Shown: piece by piece, positions 5,386-33,996 of the stretch
Layout: every line of letters begins with the position of its first letter
Position numbering within the stretch: position 1 is the first letter of the stretch
From: a virus
DNA length: 64,000 nucleotides
Strand: one strand, 5' to 3'
Virus record (IMG/VR): IMGVR_UViG_3300028394_002801
Location: 46,396 to 110,395 of that record
Translations under genes and position numbers: made by a program
The notes under the pieces: model-generated
The model's input: only the letters and a program-made list of their open reading frames with translations
Told to the model about the DNA's origin: nothing
The model's database searches: none

Positions 5386-8300
5386 TTATAATCCATATTT
5401 CTCTTTATCTGCGTTATAGTTTTGTAATACTTCAGCATCACTTAATGTTGTGTTGTATAAACGAGTAATGCCAATTCTTCCAGCATAATATTGATTAAGT
5501 TCTCCACCATTATAACTACCTATGTATAATGGATTAGTTGTATTTAATGTAGTTCCAAAAATATTTGCATTACTTCCCCAAAACGATCCATTTATATATG
5601 TTCTAATTGTATTAAGTGGGTTGCTAAATACATAAACTAATTGATACCATGTATTAAGTGTTCCATTAAAGTTAGTACCTATAGCAACTCCAGTACTCCC
5701 GGGGCTAAATTGGGCATTATTTCCAGTAGCAGTATTTACCTTAATAGCATAACTCACATCAATATTTGCTCCTCCAGTACGGAATTTTCCAAGTATAACT
5801 TTTTGAGTACCACTACTTGTCTGATAAACCCATGCTTCCATAGTCCAACTTCCACTTCCTGGTTCTAATACTGCATTATCAGCAACACTAATTTGTGATG
5901 AAGTTCCATTATATTCAAAATATGGGTATGTATATGTAATAGCCGACATTTGACCAACTAATCCATTTGGTGATAAATCATTTATTACTGTACTATGTCT
6001 ATTATAAGAATCTAAATTACTTGGGTCAAAGTGTAATACAAGATTGGCTGTTACAGCAGTAATAGCATTAAAAGTAATATTATCACCAGCTTCAGTATTT
6101 GCAAAATCTAAATCCTCCCAATATAAATAGTTACGATCAGGTACAGTAGGTGTAGGTGTTGGTGTTAGTGTTGGTGTTATTGTTTGAGTTGGTGTTATTG
6201 TTGGTGTTGGTGTTTCTGTTTGAGTTGGTGTTATAGTTTGAGTTGGTGTAATAGTGCTTGTAGGTGTTTCTGTTGGTGTTGGCGTTTCTGTTTGGGTTGG
6301 TGTAATAGTGCTTGTAGGCGTTTCTGTTTGAGTTGGTGTAATAGTATTAGTTGGTGTTGGTGTTAGTGTTGGTGTTATTGTTTGAGTTGGTGTTATTGTT
6401 GGTGTTGGTGTTTCTGTTTGAGTTGGTGTTTCTGTTTGAGTTGGAGTAATAGTGCTTGTAGGTGTTTCTGTTGGTGTTGGAGTTTCTGTTTGTGTTGGTG
6501 TTGGCGTTTCTGTTTGAGTTGGTGTTTCTGTTGGTGTTGGAGTTTCTGTTTGGGTTGGTGTTATAGTTTGAGTTGGTGTTATAGTTTGAGTTGGTGTTTC
6601 TGTTTGAGTTGGAGTTTCTGTTTGGGTTGGTGTTATAGTTTGAGTTGGTGTTATAGTTTGAGTTGGTGTTTCTGTTGGTGTTGGTGTTTCTGTTGGTGTT
6701 GGTGTTTCTGTTTGGGTTGGTGTTTCTGTTTGGGTTGGTGTTATAGTTTGAGTTGGCGTTTCTGTTGGTGTTGGAGTTTCTGTTTGAGTTGGTGTAATAG
6801 TATTAGTTGGAGTTTCTGTTTGAGTTGGTGTAATAGTATTAGTTGGAGTTTCTGTTGGTGTTGGAGTTTCTGTTTGAGTTGGAGTTTCTGTTGGTGTTGG
6901 CGTTTCTGTTTGAGTTGGTGTAATAGTATTAGTTGGAGTTTCTGTTGGTGTTGGAGTTTCTGTTTGAGTTGGAGTTTCTGTTGGTGTTGGCGTTTCTGTT
7001 TGAGTTGGTGTAATAGTTTGAGTTGGCGTTTCTGTTTGAGTTGGAGTTTCTGTTTGAGTTGGAGTTTCTGTTGGCGTTGGTGTTTCTGTTGGTGTAATAG
7101 TGCTGGTTGGTGTTTCTGTGTTAGTAGGAGTTATAGTTTGAGTTGGTGTTTCTGTTGGTGTTGGCGTTTCTGTTTGAGTTGGTGTAATAGTTTGAGTTGG
7201 TGTAATAGTTTGAGTTGGTGTTGGAGTTTCTGTTTGAGTTGGTGTAATAGTTTGAGTTGGAGTAATAGTGCTTGTAGGTGTTTCTGTTGGTGTTGGTGTT
7301 TCTGTTTGAGTTGGAGTTTCTGTTTGAGTTGGCGTAATAGTTTGAGTTGGTGTTTTGGTTGGTGTAATAGTGCTGGTTGGTGTAATAGTGCTGGTTGGTG
7401 TAATAGTTTGAGTTGGTGTTTCAGTTGGTGTTGGTGTTTCTGTTTGAGTTGGTGTTATTGTTGGTGTAATAGTGTTTGTAGGTGTTATTGTGTTAGTAGG
7501 TGTTATTGTGTTAGTAGGTGTTTCTGTTGGTGTTGGCGTTTCTGTTTGGGTTGGAGTTTCTGTTTGAGTTGGAGTAATAGTTTGAGTTGGTGTAATAGTG
7601 TTGGTTGGCGTTTCTGTTGGTGTTGGAGTTTCTGTTTGAGTTGGAGTTTCTGTTGGTGTAATAGTGTTGGTTGGTGTAATAGTGTTGGTTGGTGTAATAG
7701 TGTTGGTAGGAGTAACTGTATTGGTTGGTGTTTCTGTTACTGTTGGTGTAATAGTTTGAGTTGGTGTTTCTGTTTGAGTTGGTGTAATACTGTTAGTAGG
7801 AGTTATTGTTTGAGTTGGCGATACTGTTGGTGTAATAGTGTTGGTTGGTGTTATAGTGTTGGTTGGTGTGATTGTGTTGGTTGGTGTTTCTGTAACTGTT
7901 GGTGTGATTGTTTTTGTAGGTGTAATTGTCTTGGTAGGCGTAATTGTGTTAGTAGGTGTAATTGTATTGGTTGGTGTTTCTGTTACTGTTGGTGTAATAG
8001 TTGGTGTAATAGTTTTAGTTGGTGTAATAGTTGGTGTAATAGTTGGTGTAATTGACCTAGTTGGAGTAATAGTTGGTGTAATTGTTCTTGTTGGTGTAAT
8101 AGTGCTAGTAGGAGTCACAGTTTGAGTTGGCGTTGGTGTTGGTGTTGGATCAACTCCTTCTGGAATAATTAAATCATAAGTTGTAAGGTAACTTGGAATA
8201 TATAAACTATATATTCCACTTATCCTATCTGTTTCAGGTCTTGGCTCAACATCAAAAGGTATAGTCTTCTCACCAAGATTATATGTCACACCATTTTGCA

Positions 8301-9168
8301 ATAATGATACAAATGCTTGCTCTCCATTTAAATTTACACTTGATATTCTTATTCTTATTCTATAAGTCAAATCATTTACTGGAATTGGGTCATTTAATTG
8401 TATTTTTGGTACTGAATTTACCAATTCTGTTTCAAAAACTTGACTAATTCTATTTATTGCAGGTTTAACCTCAAATTCTTTTTCATCAATCAAAAACCCA
8501 AGCATTGTAAAATCATATGATTGAATATAAAATTTTCTGCTATCTGTGTTAATTTGAGATTCATCTTGAACATTTGTTAATAATATTGGTATATAATGTC
8601 CATTTATGGTTGTATATGATTGTCTTGATGAGAACTTTTGCAATACTTTTGTATTAAAATTATTCAAATCTCTAATCCTATTTGTGATTATCTTAACACT
8701 AAAATTAATGTCTATTGGTACTGGTTGTGGAATTGAGTAAATATCTGTGCCATTTCTTTGACCATCCCAAGTTGGCACACTTGCAAAATAAAATGGTTTT
8801 CTATCTGGTATATTATAAAGTGTTGCTGGATTTGATCCATATTTTGTATCATTCATCCTAACCAATGTAACAAATGGTGGGAGCGGATTATTATCTTCAT
8901 CAATAAATGTCCATGTTTCTGTATATTGCGACCAGTTCTGTGTGCTAACTATTCTATCTAATGTTTGTATTATTTTTCCTTCTGATGTGATTTCCAAATC
9001 ATTTTTAACAAAATCAAGCATCCCCCTATCCAAGTCATCATGTAATAATGATTTTGGCAAATAAGTCCCATCTTTAGTTATATTATCCAATAACTCCTGC
9101 CTTCTTTCAAAGAGGATTTTTTCATTAGCGATATCCAAATCTGTTTTTATATTTTTGGGTAATGGCAT
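5386..9168 (-). CDS. Giant tail fibre: conserved virion N-terminus, Pro/Thr repeat stalk, LamG-like tip
   Basis: 1260 residues in three parts. Residues 1 to about 340 are a non-repetitive domain (for example [20 protein letters not shown] and [20 protein letters not shown]) that looks like a tail-associated structural domain. Residues about 340-1010 are hexapeptide repeats of the type TPT-x-T-[IE], with x usually Q, N, P or S. The last 240 residues form a concanavalin/LamG-like lectin fold: [38 protein letters not shown] and LYIGSYNGG. This layout fits an anchor, a stiff or extended stalk and a carbohydrate-binding tip. The Thr-rich stalk is a plausible O-glycosylation substrate. It starts 1 nt after the stop of the zinc-ribbon gene. 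The frame is intact through 2 kb of repeats, which argues for selection. Confidence 0.8.
6145..8150 (-). repeat. 18-bp tandem coding repeats (Pro/Thr hexapeptide stalk)
   Basis: About 2 kb of degenerate 18-bp units encode [12 protein letters not shown]-like hexapeptides, about 110 copies. The plus strand is extremely rich in GTTGGTGTT-type sequence. Variants NT, QT, PT and ST alternate in longer super-repeats such as [11 protein letters not shown]. Such arrays change length easily by recombination or slippage, so stalk length may vary between close relatives. Array limits are approximate. Confidence 0.92.
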
Positions 9169-9944: not shown

Positions 9945-12815
9945 ATGGCAAAAAAGAAAATAACAAAAGATGAGGTTTTAGAAATATTGAAATTATATAA
10001 TGGAAGTAATAATTATTTGATTAATATTCGTTATCTATATTTAAACAATCCAAATTTTTCATTGACTGATAGTCAGATTGAGTATATTACATCATTTAGT
10101 GAAACAAAACCAAAGGTTGCAAGAAAATGGGTTGAATTGGATTCTTATTATGCAAAAATGATTGCTGATGATAAGTTATTGGTTAAAATTCCAGAGAAAA
10201 TGTGGGTTGAGAAATTATTGGCTGAAAAGGAGAAATCATATCATATTCTTGGTAGATTTTTTGAAAATGATAACTTAAATCTTTATTGGATTCCAAAGGA
10301 TGCAATTGTTGTGGATAAAACAAATAAGAATGTTGTTGTTGATTATGAAAAGTATTCACATAGAATGCCATTTGAACATCAAAAAGAGGCTATTCAAAAG
10401 TTGCTTGAAAATGATAAGTTTATTTTGGCTGATGACATGGGTTTAGGAAAAGGACTTATAAATTCAACACCTATTTATACCCCAACTGGGGTTAAAAAAA
10501 TATGTGATTTATCTGTTGGTGATAAAGTAATTGGGTCTAATGGTGAATCTTGTATTGTTACTGGAGTATTCCCCCAACCAAAACAAGAAATATATGAAAT
10601 TACTTTTAATGATCATGTTAAAATAAAAACTGATGCTTCACATTTATGGTCAGTATCTTCACCAAATTATAGTAAAAATAGAAAAAATAATAGAATAAAA
10701 AAATCTTTAATTTTATCTACAAAACAAATGTATGAGGGTGGGAAGATAAAAATAAAAGGGAATGGTTATAATAACCAAATGGATTATGAAGTTGAAACTT
10801 TTTATAAAAGTCCTAATGGTAATAACAAATGGCAAATACCTATTGTGAAACCAATTGAATTTTACAATAATGTAGAGTTACCAATAGACCCTTATTTATT
10901 GGGTCTTTGTTTGGGTGATGGGTATTTTAATAAAAATAATACTTGTGTTATTGGAACACACAAAGATGATTTTGACGAATTGCTTGGGTCTTTTGAACTC
11001 AAATCTATAGGTTTTAATAGAGAACTAAAAGAAGGTAGGATACCTTTTGGTAAAATATTAAATGAACTAGAATTACATAATACTCGCTCACACACCAAAT
11101 TCATTCCAGATATATACAAATATTCGTCCATTGAGAACCGCCTTGCTATATTGCAAGGTTTAATGGACACAGATGGTCATTGTATGTTATCCAAAAATGG
11201 GTCATTTCAGGGGACAGAATTTTCAACAGTTTCTGAAAAATTATGTGATGATGTTGCTGAAATTGTCCATACATTAGGTGGTATTTGTAGAAAACGTTCA
11301 AAGCGTGGTTCATATACTAAAAATGGAGTAAAAGTGGAATGTAGGATTGCATATAGGCTTAATATCAAATTATCTAATGATATGAACCCTTTTAGGTTAA
11401 ATAGAAAAGCAACTGCTTATAATCAACCTAAAAAATATTCAGTTGGTAGATATATTAAAAATATTGAGAAAGTGGGGGAAGATTATACAACTTGCATTTC
11501 AGTTGATGCTGATGATAAATTATATGTTACTGAACATTGCATTGTTACGCATAATACAAGTTCAGCAATTGTTGCTTCAATTGAAGCAAAACCAAGTAAA
11601 ACTTTAATTGTTTGCCCAGCAAGTTTAAAACAAAATTGGAAAAGAGAAATTGAAAATTATTCAAACAAAGAAATTTATATTTGTGAGGGAAAAAAATATG
11701 AAGATTCTGCTGATTATGTAATCATTAATTATGATATCATTAAAAACTTTCATTCATTAAAATCAAAAGAAGAAACAATAATCCAAAAGTCAAAATTTGA
11801 TTTGGTTATAATTGATGAATGCCATTATATTAAATCCCCCCAAGCATCGAGAACAAAATTGATAAATGATATTTGCAAAGATATTAATAAAATATGGTTA
11901 TTGACTGGAACGCCATTAACATCAAGACCAATTGATTATTTTAATTTATTATCTTTGGTTGACAGCCCTGTATCAAAAAACTGGATGGCCTATGTTAAAA
12001 GATATTGTGCAGGATATCAGTTTAATGTTGGAATGAATAAGGTATGGAATGTGAACGGTGCGTCAAATTTGGATGAGTTAAGGGAAAGAACATCCCCATT
12101 ATTATTAAGGCGACTAAAAGAGAATGTATTAGATTTACCAGAAAAAATAATAACACCAATTTATTTGAGATTAAAATCAAAAGAATATGAGGATGTTATG
12201 GGGGAGTATTTTGAATGGGTTAAAAATAATCCAAAAGAATCAAAATCATTGAGCGTTCAATTTACAAAGTTAATGAAGGTTAGACAAATAATTGCGGATG
12301 AGAAGATTAAGAGTACCATAGAATTTATTGAGAATACATTGGAGCAAGAGAAGAAGATTATTGTTTTCTCAAATTTTACAAACTCATTAAATAAAATATA
12401 TGAACATTTTAATAAAATTGCGGTTAAATTAGATGGTAGTTCAACAGCAAAACAAAGACATGAGAGTGTTGATGAATTTCAAACAAATGATAAGATAAAG
12501 GTTTTTGTTGGAAACATAAAAGCGGCTGGGGTTGGTATTACATTGACAAGTGCAAATGTTGTTATCTTTAATGATTTATCCTTTGTTCCAGCGGATCATA
12601 GTCAAGCGGAAGATAGGGCATATAGAATTGGACAAAAGAATTCAGTTTCTGTATTATATCCCATATTTGAAAACACCATTGAGGGAATTATATATGATAT
12701 GTTGGATAGAAAGAAAAAGATAATATCAACTATTCTTGGGGATAACTTATTTGAAACTGATACCACAGAAGATATTTTAACCCAGATATTAAATATGAAA
12801 ATAAAAACAAAATAA
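9945..12815 (+). CDS. SNF2-family DNA helicase/ATPase with in-frame intein
   Basis: 956 residues, of which 588 are host protein (extein). Helicase motifs: Q-like FEHQKEAIQKLL; Walker A DDMGLGK followed, after the intein, by TSSAIV; Walker B IIDECH (D624-H627); motif III LLTGTP; and motifs V-VI in AGVGITLTSANVVIFNDLSF and QAEDRAYRIGQ. These are the two RecA lobes of SNF2/RapA-type DNA translocases. T4-like phages use such enzymes (for example UvsW-type proteins) in recombination, replication or remodelling. The intein splits the Walker A lysine from the next Thr, so the unspliced protein should be inactive. It is divergent from the virion operon at 9852. The ATG at 9945 lies in an A/T-rich leader. 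Confidence 0.92.
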   Translation: MAKKKITKDEVLEILKLYNGSNNYLINIRYLYLNNPNFSLTDSQIEYITSFSETKPKVARKWVELDSYYAKMIADDKLLVKIPEKMWVEKLLAEKEKSYHILGRFFENDNLNLYWIPKDAIVVDKTNKNVVVDYEKYSHRMPFEHQKEAIQKLLENDKFILADDMGLGKGLINSTPIYTPTGVKKICDLSVGDKVIGSNGESCIVTGVFPQPKQEIYEITFNDHVKIKTDASHLWSVSSPNYSKNRKNNRIKKSLILSTKQMYEGGKIKIKGNGYNNQMDYEVETFYKSPNGNNKWQIPIVKPIEFYNNVELPIDPYLLGLCLGDGYFNKNNTCVIGTHKDDFDELLGSFELKSIGFNRELKEGRIPFGKILNELELHNTRSHTKFIPDIYKYSSIENRLAILQGLMDTDGHCMLSKNGSFQGTEFSTVSEKLCDDVAEIVHTLGGICRKRSKRGSYTKNGVKVECRIAYRLNIKLSNDMNPFRLNRKATAYNQPKKYSVGRYIKNIEKVGEDYTTCISVDADDKLYVTEHCIVTHNTSSAIVASIEAKPSKTLIVCPASLKQNWKREIENYSNKEIYICEGKKYEDSADYVIINYDIIKNFHSLKSKEETIIQKSKFDLVIIDECHYIKSPQASRTKLINDICKDINKIWLLTGTPLTSRPIDYFNLLSLVDSPVSKNWMAYVKRYCAGYQFNVGMNKVWNVNGASNLDELRERTSPLLLRRLKENVLDLPEKIITPIYLRLKSKEYEDVMGEYFEWVKNNPKESKSLSVQFTKLMKVRQIIADEKIKSTIEFIENTLEQEKKIIVFSNFTNSLNKIYEHFNKIAVKLDGSSTAKQRHESVDEFQTNDKIKVFVGNIKAAGVGITLTSANVVIFNDLSFVPADHSQAEDRAYRIGQKNSVSVLYPIFENTIEGIIYDMLDRKKKIISTILGDNLFETDTTEDILTQILNMKIKTK
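10452..11555 (+). other. Intein with LAGLIDADG homing endonuclease, Gly at position 1
   Basis: 368 residues, helicase residues 170-537. It is inserted exactly between GLGK and TSSAIV of the Walker A motif. Block A is GLINSTPIYTPTGVKKICDL. Block B is TDASHLWSV with the TxxH pair. LAGLIDADG motifs are LLGLCLGDGYF (D325) and LQGLMDTDGH (D410). Block F is CISVDADDKLYVTEHCIV. Block G is VTHN followed by Thr at +1. The first intein residue is Gly rather than the usual Cys or Ser. The TxxH pair, the penultimate His, the terminal Asn and the Thr at +1 are all present, so splicing is plausible, perhaps by a mechanism not starting with an N-S/N-O shift at residue 1. Both endonuclease motifs keep their acidic residue. 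Confidence 0.92.
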
Positions 12816-13118: not shown

Positions 13119-13126
13119 CACTCATT
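13104..13126. terminator. Hairpin between convergent genes
   Basis: A 9-bp perfect stem (AATGAGTGC at 13104-13112, GCACTCATT at 13118-13126) with a 5-nt loop contains the stop codon of the plus-strand gene and sits at the junction with the minus-strand solenoid operon. There is no clear T-run on either side, so termination is likely but not certain. Confidence 0.45.
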
Positions 13127-13595
13127 AAACCATTATGTTTTTATGAACTTTGCAATTTCTTTCCTCTAATTGTGCTTTTATTTCTTTTACTGTATAACGA
13201 CCTAATGGTGAGCCTTTCAACCAAATACTATTTTTAACTTCCATTCCAATAGGAAATTCTTTTATCCCAGTTCTTTGTATAGATAAGGCACCCCCAACAT
13301 ATAGGTTATCTGGTAAAGATTTTAAATCCCTACAATCATACAAAAGTAAATCATCACCAACTATAAGTTTTTCTGGTAATTCTGTTATTGTTGAAAAACT
13401 TAAATCTAAGTAGTCAGTGACTTCTAAAATTTTTGGTAATTTAGTTATCAATTCACCATACAACTCTAATGCTCCCTTGTGAAAATACTTTTCAGGTATT
13501 GACTCAATGTCATGCAATAATATCCATTTTAATGATAATTTGTCTTCCTCTGATTTTAGGAAATCCATTATTCTTTTTATTGTTGTTTTATCCAT
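13125..13595 (-). CDS. LRR-like solenoid protein, paralogue 7 (divergent)
   Basis: 156 residues, last transcribed and most diverged member of a seven-gene tandem family. It keeps the family N-terminus (MDKTTIKRIMDFLKSEEDKL), then about four repeats of about 20-23 residues with cores LPKILEV, LPEKLIVGDDLLLY, LPDNLYVGGALSI and FPIGMEV. The family C-terminus ending in a PGFIKG-like motif is replaced by VKEIKAQLEERNCKVHKN. The repeats follow the leucine-rich repeat logic, with one strand (L-x-L) and a turn per unit. Role unknown; a protein- or glycan-binding scaffold is the natural guess. It overlaps the upstream paralogue by 8 nt. Confidence 0.65.
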   Translation of the reverse strand: MDKTTIKRIMDFLKSEEDKLSLKWILLHDIESIPEKYFHKGALELYGELITKLPKILEVTDYLDLSFSTITELPEKLIVGDDLLLYDCRDLKSLPDNLYVGGALSIQRTGIKEFPIGMEVKNSIWLKGSPLGRYTVKEIKAQLEERNCKVHKNIMV

Positions 13596-14253
13596 TATCT
13601 TCTCTTATTATATCCCCATTTATATAACCATCTGGTTCTATCATACTTAATATGGCTTCATCTGAAATTTTTGCTAATGGGTTATTTTCAATAGATAAAT
13701 CACCATCAACTTGTAAGCCTTTTGGTAATGTGTTTATCATTGTGTGATCTAAATACAAATTCTCCCCAACTTCCAATCCTTCTGGTAATGAGGTTATTTT
13801 TGTATTGTATAGACTTAAATAGCCACCAACTTTCAAATTGTTAGGTAGTGAAGTCAAGTCTGTACAATAACCCAAATCCAAACCACCATCAACATTTAAG
13901 TCTTTTGGTAATGATTTTATTTTTAAAGCGACTAATTTAAAATCACCACCAACATATAAACCTTTTGGGATTTGTTTTATACTTGTACCTTCCAAATCCA
14001 AATCACCACCAACATATAAGTTATCTGGTAAATATTTTAAATGTTTACAACTTGATAAATTCAAATTATCCTCCACCTTTAATCCTTCTGGTATGTAAGT
14101 TATATTTTCTTCAAATAAATCCAAATCACCTTTAATGTTTAATTCATCATCTGTAAATGTTTCATTATTCATTAATTTCCAAACAAATGGTTTATTTTTA
14201 TTCTCTTTTTCTTCAAGAAAATCAAATATGTTTTTCAATGTGGTATTATCCAT
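13588..14253 (-). CDS. LRR-like solenoid protein, paralogue 6
   Basis: 221 residues with the family cap MDNTTLKNIFDFLEEKENK and KPFVWKLMNN, then seven repeats of the pattern LPxGLxVGGxLxLxxTxIxx, for example LPNNLKVGGYLSLYNTKITS. The cap ends by IPLT/FTDDELN-type sequence common to all paralogues. The C-terminal cap has SDEAILSMIEPDGYINGDII. It overlaps the downstream gene by 8 nt and lies 2 nt after paralogue 5. No signal peptide or membrane segment is seen, so it is probably intracellular or virion-borne. Confidence 0.68.
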   Translation of the reverse strand: MDNTTLKNIFDFLEEKENKNKPFVWKLMNNETFTDDELNIKGDLDLFEENITYIPEGLKVEDNLNLSSCKHLKYLPDNLYVGGDLDLEGTSIKQIPKGLYVGGDFKLVALKIKSLPKDLNVDGGLDLGYCTDLTSLPNNLKVGGYLSLYNTKITSLPEGLEVGENLYLDHTMINTLPKGLQVDGDLSIENNPLAKISDEAILSMIEPDGYINGDIIREDNG

Positions 14254-14255
14254 TA

Positions 14256-14783
14256 TTATCTTATTATATTTCCTTTTATAAATCCTGGCTCAATCATTTT
14301 TCTTAATTGATCATTTGAATATATTATTAATTCTGTTCCTCTTATATTCAAATCACCACCAACTTTCAATCCTTTTGATAATGATTTTAAATTTTTGCAC
14401 ATTATTAAATATAAATTCCTGCCAACATATAATCCTTCTGGTAATGATGTTATTTTTGTATAATCTAAATGCAAATCCTCCCCAACTTTCAATCCTTCTG
14501 GTAATGAGGTTATTTTTGAAAATGATAAATCCAAACTCCCCCCAACTTTCAATTCTTCTGGTAATGAGGCTATTTTTGAATACTCTAAAATCAAATTACC
14601 CCAAACTTTTAAACCTTCTGGTAATGAAGTTATTTTTGAATTTCTTAAATATAAATTGCCTTCAAAATTCAAATCTTCTTTTGTTAATGGAATATTATTT
14701 GATGCTTTCCAAATAAAAGGTATTTTATGTTCTCCTTTTTCTTCAAGAAAATCTAATATGTTTTTCAATGTGGTATTATCCAT
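14256..14783 (-). CDS. LRR-like solenoid protein, paralogue 5
   Basis: 175 residues: N-terminal cap (MDNTTLKNILDFLEEKGEHK, then IPFIWKASNN), five repeats such as LPEGLKVGEDLHLDYTKITS, and C-terminal cap YSNDQLRKMIEPGFIKGNII. The cap and repeat DNA are nearly identical to stretches in the neighbouring genes, so recent duplication or gene conversion is likely. It is separated from both neighbours by 2 nt. Function is unknown. Confidence 0.68.
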   Translation of the reverse strand: MDNTTLKNILDFLEEKGEHKIPFIWKASNNIPLTKEDLNFEGNLYLRNSKITSLPEGLKVWGNLILEYSKIASLPEELKVGGSLDLSFSKITSLPEGLKVGEDLHLDYTKITSLPEGLYVGRNLYLIMCKNLKSLSKGLKVGGDLNIRGTELIIYSNDQLRKMIEPGFIKGNIIR

Positions 14784-14785
14784 TA

Positions 14786-15205
14786 TTATCTTATTATATC
14801 TCCTTTTATAAATCCTGGATCAATCATTTCTCTTAATTGTTCATCTGAATATTTTGTTAAGGCTGTACCTTCAATCTGTAAGTCATCCCCAACTTCTAAC
14901 CCTTTTGGTAATGAGGTCACACTTGAATGATTCAAACTCAAAATACCTCCAACTTTCAATCCTTCTGGTAAAGATGTTAAATGTTTACACATAAATAAAT
15001 ATAAAAACCCACCAACTTTCAATCCTTTTGGTAAGGATGTAATTTTTGTAAATGATAAATGCAAATTACCTTTTTGATTTAACTCTTCTTTTGTTAAGGG
15101 GTATCCAAATCTTAATTTCCAAACAAGATTATCTCTTTCTGAATGTTTTTTGTTTTCTTTTTCTTCAAGAAAATCTAATATTTTTTTTATTGTGTTATTA
15201 TCCAT
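14786..15205 (-). CDS. LRR-like solenoid protein, paralogue 4 (short)
   Basis: 139 residues, the shortest member: cap MDNNTIKKILDFLEEKENKK with LVWKLRFGYPLTKEELN, only three repeats (for example LPKGLKVGGFLYLFMCKHLT) and the C-terminal cap YSDEQLREMIDPGFIKGDII. The difference in repeat number from its neighbours (three against up to nine) shows that repeats are gained or lost in whole units. Its start shares one base with the stop of paralogue 3. Confidence 0.68.
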   Translation of the reverse strand: MDNNTIKKILDFLEEKENKKHSERDNLVWKLRFGYPLTKEELNQKGNLHLSFTKITSLPKGLKVGGFLYLFMCKHLTSLPEGLKVGGILSLNHSSVTSLPKGLEVGDDLQIEGTALTKYSDEQLREMIDPGFIKGDIIR

Positions 15206-25629: not shown

Positions 25630-26886
25630 TTAACCAATATTTAATTGACCTGTAATCCTATCACACCAACCTTTTGATTTTGAATAAGGCCAAACAACCC
25701 AATACTTTGGTTGCTTTGTTGTTTGAAAATCCCTCCATATTTTGCAATATTTATCTGGGTCTCTCATCATAGTATTAATTTCATTTATATCAGCATCTTT
25801 CCTATATAAAGTTTCATCATTATCACCATGGAATGCCACCACCCAATATTCATAATCTGGTTCTGGAACTGAAACATATTGGATATCAATACAATGTCTA
25901 AATATAATTGAAAAACTATTCTCCCATTCTTCCTCTGTCTTATACTCCTCCTTAACTGGGGGGTTTTTCTTATCTATTGTCCATTGTTGAACTGCACGTT
26001 TGGCATAATGAATGCCAGCATATTTTTCATAATCTCTTAATGTTCTAACTGGGCCAAAACCATATAATCCATCATGCCCCTCTTGTTGAACACCATCCAC
26101 ACCAAACAATCGCTTGTTTAAATAATGTGCCCTCTCATTCTTTTTAACCCAATCTCTATCATCATCCCATTGTTTAACCTTTCCCTTTCTTGTATATTCA
26201 TGATATATAATTGGAAAATGTGGATGGAATAAATCATATCCCCAAGTATATGCCCTAACTGCAATTGAAATTTCCTCACCATGAAAATAATATTCTGGAT
26301 TATGTTGAACTTCATTTGCAAATTGTCCTAGGGTAAAGCAATAATGTGCTGAATAAAATCTTGCTGGAATTGGTTTATCTAAACTCCGCCAATCTGGAAT
26401 TGTTTCAGGCATAAAGAATACATTTCCCTCTGGGGAAAACCTATCAAAAACCATCCTCCAAGGTTCTTGCACCCTCCCTGCTGGGTCATTTGTTGGTTCA
26501 TAAGAACAAGCATAGGAAGTCAATAAAGGTTTCTTATACCCATCTTTCTGCAAGCCCTTAATTATTTTTATTAATGTATCATCCCAATCTTGATTAAAAC
26601 GCATATGTGAATCAATTTGAAGGGTATATTGCTCATTATTATATAATTGCTGAATTAAATTTCTTGCCCAACAAGCCCCATTGGATTCATTATATGGTAT
26701 ATCTAATATTTTAAATCTTTTATCTTTTCTCCATTTATCAAGATTATCAAAACCATCCTCATCAGCATATTGCCTTGCAATAGCAAAAACAAGGTTCTTT
26801 GGCTTCTTTGCCTTATCCAAAATGTCCTCAATGGTTTTAACTAATTCAGGATCGCGATAACTTGCAATCTGTACAAATATTTTCAT
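25630..26886 (-). CDS. Glycosyltransferase of the GlcNAc (Skp1-type) family, copy A
   Basis: 418 residues. MKIFVQIASYRDPELVKTIE at the N-terminus, the DxD-like QIDSHMRFNQDWD (donor/metal site), SAHYCFTLGQFANEV and GEEISIAVRAYTWGYDLFHP are the hallmarks of the GlcNAc family (Pfam PF11397), whose characterised members add GlcNAc to hydroxyproline of Skp1 in protists. A paralogue lies at 32725. The gene ends a minus-strand cluster of seven glycosyltransferase-like genes downstream of a collagen-like fibre gene. The sugar and acceptor cannot be told from sequence; a virion fibre or a lipid/surface glycan are both possible. Confidence 0.85.
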   Translation of the reverse strand: MKIFVQIASYRDPELVKTIEDILDKAKKPKNLVFAIARQYADEDGFDNLDKWRKDKRFKILDIPYNESNGACWARNLIQQLYNNEQYTLQIDSHMRFNQDWDDTLIKIIKGLQKDGYKKPLLTSYACSYEPTNDPAGRVQEPWRMVFDRFSPEGNVFFMPETIPDWRSLDKPIPARFYSAHYCFTLGQFANEVQHNPEYYFHGEEISIAVRAYTWGYDLFHPHFPIIYHEYTRKGKVKQWDDDRDWVKKNERAHYLNKRLFGVDGVQQEGHDGLYGFGPVRTLRDYEKYAGIHYAKRAVQQWTIDKKNPPVKEEYKTEEEWENSFSIIFRHCIDIQYVSVPEPDYEYWVVAFHGDNDETLYRKDADINEINTMMRDPDKYCKIWRDFQTTKQPKYWVVWPYSKSKGWCDRITGQLNIG

Positions 26887-32724: not shown

Positions 32725-33996
32725 TTATTTTAAATTAATTTCAACCTTTTCAGCCCAACCACGGGTTTCACTTAATCCCCAAAACACAACTTTGGTTGGA
32801 TTTTTATCTGTCATAAACATCTCCTCATAATGAATAGGTTTTCCATTTTGTAGGAAGTTTTTTAATCTATCATCATCAATAAATTTACTATTAATACCAA
32901 TACCATTCTCATCATCAAATGCTACTAATATGCTTTTATAATCATTTGCAGGTAATTGGTTTCTATCAATATTAACCAAATGATAAAATGAATACATAAA
33001 TGAATCCTCCCACTCTTTCTCATCTTCAATAACTGGATTTGGGGGAAATCTATTTTCTTTTGTGTATTTTTGAAATGATTTTTTCTTAAAATGTATTCCA
33101 GCATATTTCTCATAATCTCTAAGAGTTCTTACTGTACCTAAATCATATCCTGTTAAATCAAAACCATTATCTTCTGTTTGCAATAATTGCCTTATCTTTG
33201 ACCTCCCAATATCTTGTTGTTTCCACCACATATTATCACCACGTTTGCTTTGGTCATCCCAAACAAGTTTGCCATTCCTCTCTTCTCTCATTGTTGCGTG
33301 CCAAATAACAACTCTATGTGGGTGAAATAAATCATATCCATGTGTGAAACTACGCACACTCAAATTTATTTCTTCACCACTAAAATATATGTCTGGGTCA
33401 TGTTTTACATCTTTTGCCCATTTGTTTGGCCCAAATGCAAAATGACCGCTAAGAAATCTTGCGGGATAAGGCTTTGTTAAATTTTTCCAATTTGGGACAC
33501 CTGTTGGTCTAATGAATATTGTTCCATGTGGGTAAAAACTTGCAGCCTCAGATAACCAAGGCTCCATAACCCTCTTTTCTGGGTCATTGAATGGATCATA
33601 ATATGGTAAATATCCACAAATTATGGGGTTATAACCTTCCTTAACCAAATCTGCATACCAAGTTAATAATGTTGTGTCCCATCCTTTTGTGAATCTATGG
33701 TGAGCATCTAATTGTAATACAAAATCTTCATCTGTTAAAAGTTTTTCATTTATGATTGCTCTAGCATAAGGTAAACCTTTTGCCTCTGTATATAGCATAT
33801 CATATATTTTAAATCTTTTATCTTTTCTAAATTCATCCAAATTATCAAATTCATCATCAGGATGATATTGCCTACAAATACCAAAAACTAAATTTTTTGG
33901 ATTGTCTGCATTCTCTAATGCGTTTTTTATTGTTGGGATTAATTCAGGTTCTCTATATGCTGGTAAGTGAATTAAAATCTTTTTTGCCTTTGTCAT
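32725..33996 (-). CDS. Glycosyltransferase of the GlcNAc (Skp1-type) family, copy B
   Basis: 423 residues, paralogue of the 25630 gene. Shared signatures: ILIHLPAYREPELIPTIKNA at the start, QLDAHHRFTKGWDTTL as donor/metal site, SGHFAFGPNKWAKDV, GEEINLSVRSFTHGYDLFHP and RTLRDYEKYAGIHF. These place it in the PF11397 family. It is the first gene of the glycosyltransferase cluster, downstream of the terminator that follows the collagen-like fibre gene. Two members of this family bracket the cluster, so two different acceptors or linkages are likely. Members elsewhere act on hydroxyproline in proteins, which fits the idea of fibre glycosylation, but this is inference. Confidence 0.85.
   Translation of the reverse strand: MTKAKKILIHLPAYREPELIPTIKNALENADNPKNLVFGICRQYHPDDEFDNLDEFRKDKRFKIYDMLYTEAKGLPYARAIINEKLLTDEDFVLQLDAHHRFTKGWDTTLLTWYADLVKEGYNPIICGYLPYYDPFNDPEKRVMEPWLSEAASFYPHGTIFIRPTGVPNWKNLTKPYPARFLSGHFAFGPNKWAKDVKHDPDIYFSGEEINLSVRSFTHGYDLFHPHRVVIWHATMREERNGKLVWDDQSKRGDNMWWKQQDIGRSKIRQLLQTEDNGFDLTGYDLGTVRTLRDYEKYAGIHFKKKSFQKYTKENRFPPNPVIEDEKEWEDSFMYSFYHLVNIDRNQLPANDYKSILVAFDDENGIGINSKFIDDDRLKNFLQNGKPIHYEEMFMTDKNPTKVVFWGLSETRGWAEKVEINLK

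What the first reader, a model, noticed from the sequence alone, without database searches (positions are those of the whole stretch)
10452..11555. Gly1 LAGLIDADG intein splitting the Walker A motif of a phage SNF2 helicase
The boundaries are exact: removing 368 residues restores DDMGLGK followed by TSSAIV. The first intein residue is Gly, not the usual Cys or Ser, while the TxxH pair, the His-Asn end and Thr at +1 are present. Both LAGLIDADG motifs keep their acid. Known: the N-terminal nucleophile starts splicing in class 1 inteins; variants with other residues use other routes. An ATPase unable to work before splicing would couple helicase activity to splicing.
Basis: partly seen in the sequence, partly recalled or inferred. 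Interest (0 to 1): 0.66.

Follow-up and report, generated by a model that had tools for sequence, protein, structure and literature searches.

The report
Class 3 intein in phage helicase
A self-removing protein segment sits in the ATP-binding loop of a phage helicase; its odd first residue (glycine) is expected, because it belongs to a known class of such segments that starts the removal reaction with an internal cysteine instead.

Summary
The intein is real and its borders are exact: 368 residues (10452-11555) between Lys and Thr of the Walker A motif of a SNF2-family helicase. The closest helicases on record (C-extein up to 98% identical) lack it and read GK|T; 75 of the 80 nearest are empty. 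Gly1 is not an anomaly. Block B is DxxH (D61, H64), not TxxH, as in the solved class 3 intein of M. smegmatis DnaB. In 190 distinct relatives residue 1 is A, G, C, F, S, V, M, L, D, E or R, while Cys F:4 and Thr G:5 never change. Best model: C348 attacks the Lys-Gly bond, the N-extein passes to Thr+1 (the Walker A Thr), and Asn368 cyclises. The intein is mobile: its silent-site divergence is lower than the helicase's, and its endonuclease is under purifying selection. This is a new member of a known kind. A by-product looks new: in class 3 inteins residue 1 and block B:7 vary together (bulky residue 1 with Gly B:7; Gly1 with Asp), supported by independent phylogenetic pairs. Splicing itself was not tested.

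The parts
9945..12815 (+). SNF2-family helicase gene with in-frame intein (precursor, 956 aa)
   Evidence: ORF; PF00176 6.7e-29, PF00271 4.4e-18; phrog_62 DNA helicase 6e-108
9945..10451 (+). N-extein (169 aa), ends in DDMGLGK
   Evidence: empty alleles
10431..10451 (+). first part of Walker A motif, DDMGLGK; completed by Thr at 11556
10452..11555 (+). class 3 LAGLIDADG intein, 368 aa, Gly1...His-Asn
10452..10454 (+). Gly1, first intein residue (not the nucleophile)
   Evidence: variable among relatives
10632..10634 (+). Asp61, block B:7 (DxxH), covaries with residue 1
10641..10643 (+). His64, block B:10
   Evidence: invariant, 190 of 190
10647..10649 (+). Trp66, block B:12, W of WCT
   Evidence: 178 of 190 W, 11 F, 1 H
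10896..10922 (+). LAGLIDADG motif 1 (LLGLCLGDG, acid D156)
   Evidence: D invariant
11151..11177 (+). LAGLIDADG motif 2 (LQGLMDTDG, acid D241)
   Evidence: D invariant; PF14528 match 230-287
11493..11495 (+). Cys348, block F:4, C of WCT, predicted first nucleophile
   Evidence: 190 of 190; aligned to the F:4 Cys of the MchDnaB1 intein
11547..11549 (+). Thr366, block G:5, T of WCT
   Evidence: 190 of 190
11550..11555 (+). His367-Asn368, penultimate His and cyclising Asn
11556..12815 (+). C-extein (419 aa); +1 is the Walker A Thr

Best explanation
This is a mobile class 3 intein of the P-loop (GK|T) family. Inferred mechanism: after folding, Cys348 (F:4), helped by His64 and Thr366 and held by a core containing Trp66, attacks the Lys-Gly1 peptide bond and makes a block F thioester branch. 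Thr+1, which is the Walker A Thr, takes over the N-extein. Asn368, helped by His367, cyclises and frees the intein. An O-to-N acyl shift then leaves the normal peptide bond of DDMGLGKTSS. Residue 1 does no chemistry, so Gly is as good as Ala. The LAGLIDADG domain spreads the intein into empty helicase alleles at the P-loop codons. Shown here: anatomy, exact borders, the WCT signature, its conservation against a variable residue 1, and signs of horizontal transfer. Inferred: the chemistry, nuclease activity, and the precursor being inactive.
For: WCT and DxxH present. Cys F:4 and Thr G:5 are in all 190 distinct relatives and Trp in 178, while residue 1 takes 11 letters; on a 51-sequence tree residue 1 changed at least 17 times and F:4 none. 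Sequence match to class 3 MchDnaB1 (6rix, 1.8e-6) and MsmDnaBi1 (6bs8, 1.9e-4), with F:4 Cys and THN aligned in 6rix. Model pLDDT 89; its splicing part fits 6riy at 1.1 A over 69 columns, and the whole chain fits HEN-bearing inteins such as PI-SceI, TMq 0.67. 75 of 80 nearest helicases are empty at the same bond. dS window versus L002 is 0.37 in the intein but 1.05 in the C-extein; intein dN/dS 0.2-0.25. Literature: PMC5222942, PMC7664689, PMC6195587, PMC5050341.
Against: No splicing data; a class 3 intein can be dead (the Arthrobacter case, PMC3196547, though that one had lost Cys F:4). Shared WCT residues could in part reflect common descent, but residue 1 varied over the same tree. A class 2 route is not excluded by sequence alone.
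Confidence: 0.93

Rival explanations
1. Class 2-like route: Thr+1 attacks the Lys-Gly bond directly, without an internal Cys.
For: No nucleophile at residue 1; Thr+1 present.
Against: Cys F:4 is invariant together with Thr G:5 and nearly invariant Trp B:12. According to the literature held, class 2 inteins are known only from KlbA, and verified WCT inteins lose splicing when Cys F:4 is mutated (PMC3196547, PMC5222942).
Confidence: 0.03
2. Decayed class 1 intein that lost its Cys1/Ser1 and no longer splices; the helicase is broken and only the endonuclease is kept.
For: Residue 1 is Gly. Decay does occur in the family: L055-L057 have lost Cys F:4, Trp and the terminal Asn.
Against: All other splicing residues are intact and the intein is under purifying selection, dN/dS about 0.2-0.25. 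Gly1 recurs in 20 of 190 distinct relatives with intact sites. C-extein dN/dS 0.05-0.08 says the helicase is used.
Confidence: 0.04
3. Regulatory intein: splicing is held back (redox, DNA binding) to time helicase activity in infection. This would be an addition to the class 3 mechanism, not an alternative to it.
For: The site splits the P-loop, so the precursor should be inactive. A class 3 intein at the same kind of site in M. smegmatis DnaB is blocked by oxidation of its catalytic Cys (PMC6195587).
Against: 75 of 80 nearest helicases, some 97-98% identical over the C-extein, have no intein, so such control is dispensable. No regulatory evidence here.
Confidence: 0.1

Closest known systems
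Deinococcus radiodurans Snf2 intein (Brace et al. 2010, cited in PMC5222942 and PMC4031507; paper itself not held)
   Same: Class 3 intein in a SNF2-family protein, starts with the block F Cys
   Different: Bacterial host; its insertion site and residue 1 were not compared here
M. smegmatis DnaBi1 and M. chimaera DnaB1 class 3 inteins (6bs8; 6rix, 6riy)
   Same: WCT triplet, no nucleophile at residue 1; P-loop site, DxxH block B and Ala1 as reported for DnaBi1
   Different: Mini-inteins without an active endonuclease; DnaB host; Ser+1 reported for DnaBi1
Phage P-loop class 3 inteins with endonuclease, e.g. Pseudomonas phage PhiPA3 gp233 SNF2 helicase (L494), Brevundimonas phage Papperlapapp helicase (L489)
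   Same: GK|T site, WCT, LAGLIDADG, 31-33% identity
   Different: Residue 1 is Ala with Cys B:7 (PhiPA3) or Met with Gly B:7 (Papperlapapp) instead of Gly with Asp
gp41-1 intein (6qaz) and its engineered WCT form (6riz)
   Same: Best sequence matches among solved structures; similar block B context
   Different: gp41-1 is class 1 with Cys1; grafting WCT on it did not give splicing (PMC7664689)

Membership tests
Class 3 intein | No required nucleophile at residue 1 | tested here: met
   Gly1; residue 1 variable in relatives
Class 3 intein | Trp at block B:12 | tested here: met
   W66, 178 of 190 relatives
Class 3 intein | Cys at block F:4 | tested here: met
   C348, 190 of 190; aligned to the catalytic Cys of 6rix
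Class 3 intein | Thr at block G:5 | tested here: met
   T366, 190 of 190
Class 3 intein | Ser or Thr (rarely Cys) at +1 | tested here: met
   Thr+1; expectation from PMC5222942
Class 3 intein | Block F branched intermediate, splicing lost when Cys F:4 is mutated | not testable with these tools
   needs expression of the precursor
Class 3 intein | Falls in the monophyletic class 3 clade apart from class 1 inteins | not tested
   No tree with class 1 outgroups was built; only the similarity to solved class 3 inteins was seen
Class 1 intein | Cys, Ser or Thr at residue 1 | tested here: not met
   Gly1; border fixed by empty alleles
Class 2 intein (KlbA type) | No WCT triplet, KlbA host | tested here: not met
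   WCT present; SNF2 helicase host
LAGLIDADG homing endonuclease intein | Two LAGLIDADG motifs with metal-binding acids | tested here: met
   D156, D241 invariant in 51; PF14528 above cut-off
LAGLIDADG homing endonuclease intein | Cuts the empty allele and homes | not testable with these tools
   Indirect: lower silent divergence in intein than extein

The most novel reading that the evidence does not exclude
In class 3 inteins residue 1 is not free but is a packing partner of block B:7: Phe, Met, Leu, Asp or Glu at residue 1 goes with Gly at B:7, Gly1 with Asp, Ala or Val1 mostly with Cys or Asp. The Gly1/Asp61 pair of this intein would be one of a few allowed pairs. That would give a rule for which residue 1 changes a class 3 intein tolerates.
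Probability: 0.7. Interest if true: 0.45.

Novelty: new member of a known kind. Interest (0 to 1): 0.32.

Why it matters
It removes an apparent oddity: Gly1 is a normal state in a large phage clade of class 3 inteins. It adds a set of sequences in which residue 1 ranges from Gly to Phe, Met, Asp and Glu on one catalytic core, which makes the role of residue 1 and of block B:7 directly testable, and points to class 3 inteins with tolerant N-termini for protein engineering. The same family shows full, empty and escaped free-standing states at one phage gene.

Tried and rejected
Shifted border giving Cys or Ser at residue 1: rejected, empty alleles fix the border. TxxH block B: rejected, it is DxxH. 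Class 1 and class 2: rejected on Gly1 and WCT. Reading the residue 1/B:7 link as shared ancestry or module exchange: tested with independent pairs (13-14 of 14 the same way, p about 2e-4); other columns of the N-terminal half reach phi 0.42 at most against 0.92 for B:7. On trees from the N-half or the endonuclease alone the direction is the same but there are too few supported pairs for significance (4 and 7). Hold-out of new loci with the rule fixed beforehand: bulky residue 1 two of two with Gly, Gly1 two of two with Asp, one exception (Val1 with Gly, Erwinia phage Kwan, L492) (rule, result). Two further scans brought few new sequences. Brace 2010 and Tori and Perler 2011 were not held, so their residue 1 data could not be read.

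Full report
OBSERVATION. The frame 9945-12815 (+) is a single 956-aa ORF. Its ends match SNF2-related and helicase C domains and its middle a LAGLIDADG_3 domain. Translating 10452-11555 gives 368 residues from GLINSTPIYTPTG to CIVTHN, followed by Thr. The record is a 110-kb virus contig and holds one copy.

BORDERS. A search with the C-extein brought 80 near helicases. 75 have no insert and read GK|T; 5 hold an intein at the same bond. L082 is 98% identical over the C-extein and reads ...GGGTTTGGGAAAA|ACTAGTTCAGC, against window ...GGTTTAGGAAAA|[1104 nt]|ACAAGTTCAGC. Removing exactly 1104 nt gives the common allele, so Gly1 is certain.

CLASS. Aligned to its relatives, the intein has D61 (B:7), H64 (B:10), W66 (B:12), C348 (F:4), T366 (G:5), H367, N368 and Thr+1. 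Trp B:12, Cys F:4 and Thr G:5 are the published class 3 signature (PMC5222942; PMC7664689; PMC5050341). In 51 aligned inteins the Cys, Thr, His-Asn and both endonuclease acids never vary, residue 1 changed at least 17 times on the tree and F:4 never. In 190 distinct inteins at GK or similar sites residue 1 is A 110, G 20, C 13, F 12, S 11, V 8, M 6, L 5, D 2, E 2, R 1, with Cys F:4 and Thr G:5 in all. The large scans found relatives mostly through conserved stretches of the endonuclease and body (one search used one pattern that begins at residue 1), so the spread at residue 1 is not a search artefact. The set was filtered for a GK/AK/NK border and HN[TSC] end, which removes badly decayed copies. 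Named phages carry the same kind at GK|T, e.g. PhiPA3 gp233 (SNF2 helicase, Ala1) and Brevundimonas phage Papperlapapp (Met1).

STRUCTURE. phmmer against solved structures gives gp41-1 and its WCT-engineered form, then MchDnaB1 and MsmDnaB1 class 3 inteins; in the 6rix alignment block B DASHLW meets DAAHQW, and the end TTCISVDADDKLYVTEH-CIVTHN meets VRCVEVDNPAHLYLAGRgMVPTHN. That second stretch alone scores at noise level, so it is illustrative; the conserved columns of the family carry the argument. An AlphaFold model from 51 relatives has mean pLDDT 89. Foldseek ranks HEN-bearing inteins (PI-SceI, TliVMA) first and fits part of the splicing domain to class 3 MchDnaB1 at 1.1 A over 69 columns.

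MOBILITY. Between window and L002 silent divergence is 0.37 in the intein and 1.05 in the C-extein; between L001 and L002 0.28 and 0.87; between window and L001 0.21 and 0.35. The empty L082 is nearer in its C-extein (0.20) than either intein-bearing relative. Intein dN/dS is 0.20-0.25, endonuclease part 0.13-0.33. This fits a nuclease kept by selection and recent horizontal spread.

MECHANISM. Best reading: C348 attacks the Lys169-Gly bond, Thr+1 accepts the N-extein, Asn368 cyclises. Shown: the residues and their conservation. Inferred from verified class 3 inteins: each chemical step. The +1 nucleophile is the Walker A Thr, so the P-loop is split until splicing; an inactive precursor is likely but untested, and control by splicing is not supported by the many empty alleles.

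BY-PRODUCT. Residue 1 and B:7 vary together: F/M/L/D/E with Gly in 26 of 27, Ala never with Gly (0 of 110), Gly1 with Asp in 19 of 20 including L447. B:7 is the top partner of residue 1 (APC 0.418, next 0.204). Independent pairs on a tree without these columns: 13-14 of 14 the same way, median p 2.4e-4. In the N-terminal half no other column passes phi 0.42, B:7 has 0.92. A hold-out with the rule fixed first gave one exception; most of the roughly 33 new sequences were uninformative close kin; of the informative ones 4 of 4 fit and one Val1 did not. I found no report of this in the papers held, which is a limited search.

VERDICT. Ordinary in kind: a new, well-defined member of the phage P-loop class 3 inteins. 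The original reason for interest (Gly1) falls away; the residue 1/B:7 pairing is the part worth a bench test.

Noticed in passing
L055 3980-5113 (also L056, L057): A relative of this intein stands free, as its own ORF whose ATG is intein residue 1 (Met), about 200 bp downstream of an intein-less SNF2 helicase whose P-loop reads GK|S instead of GK|T. Splicing residues are lost (Trp to Cys, Cys F:4 to Gly, Asn to Asp), endonuclease acids kept: it looks like an intein that left its host gene.
   Followed up: partly
relatives L001-L504, residues 1 and B:7: Coupled variation of intein residue 1 and block B:7 in class 3 inteins.
   Followed up: yes
L019, L022, L041, L042, L044, L047, L048: Some relatives carry Cys both at residue 1 and at F:4, so could in principle use either route.
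   Followed up: no
window 5386-9168 (-): 1260-aa protein with several hundred residues of Thr-Pro repeats (TPTxT) before a C-terminal part that resembles a lectin/LamG-like domain by eye.
   Followed up: no
window 13125-15205 (-): Run of at least four paralogous short proteins with leucine-rich repeats (SLPEGLKVGG), no PHROG match for the one tested.
   Followed up: no
window 25630-26886 (-) and 32725-33996 (-): Two genes of the same phage glycosyltransferase family, phrog_24687.
   Followed up: no
L067, L070, L071, L074, L079: The same class 3 intein family sits at GK/AK|T in other, unidentified P-loop proteins (GPAGTGK, GPAGSAK, GYAGTGK) of other phages.
   Followed up: no
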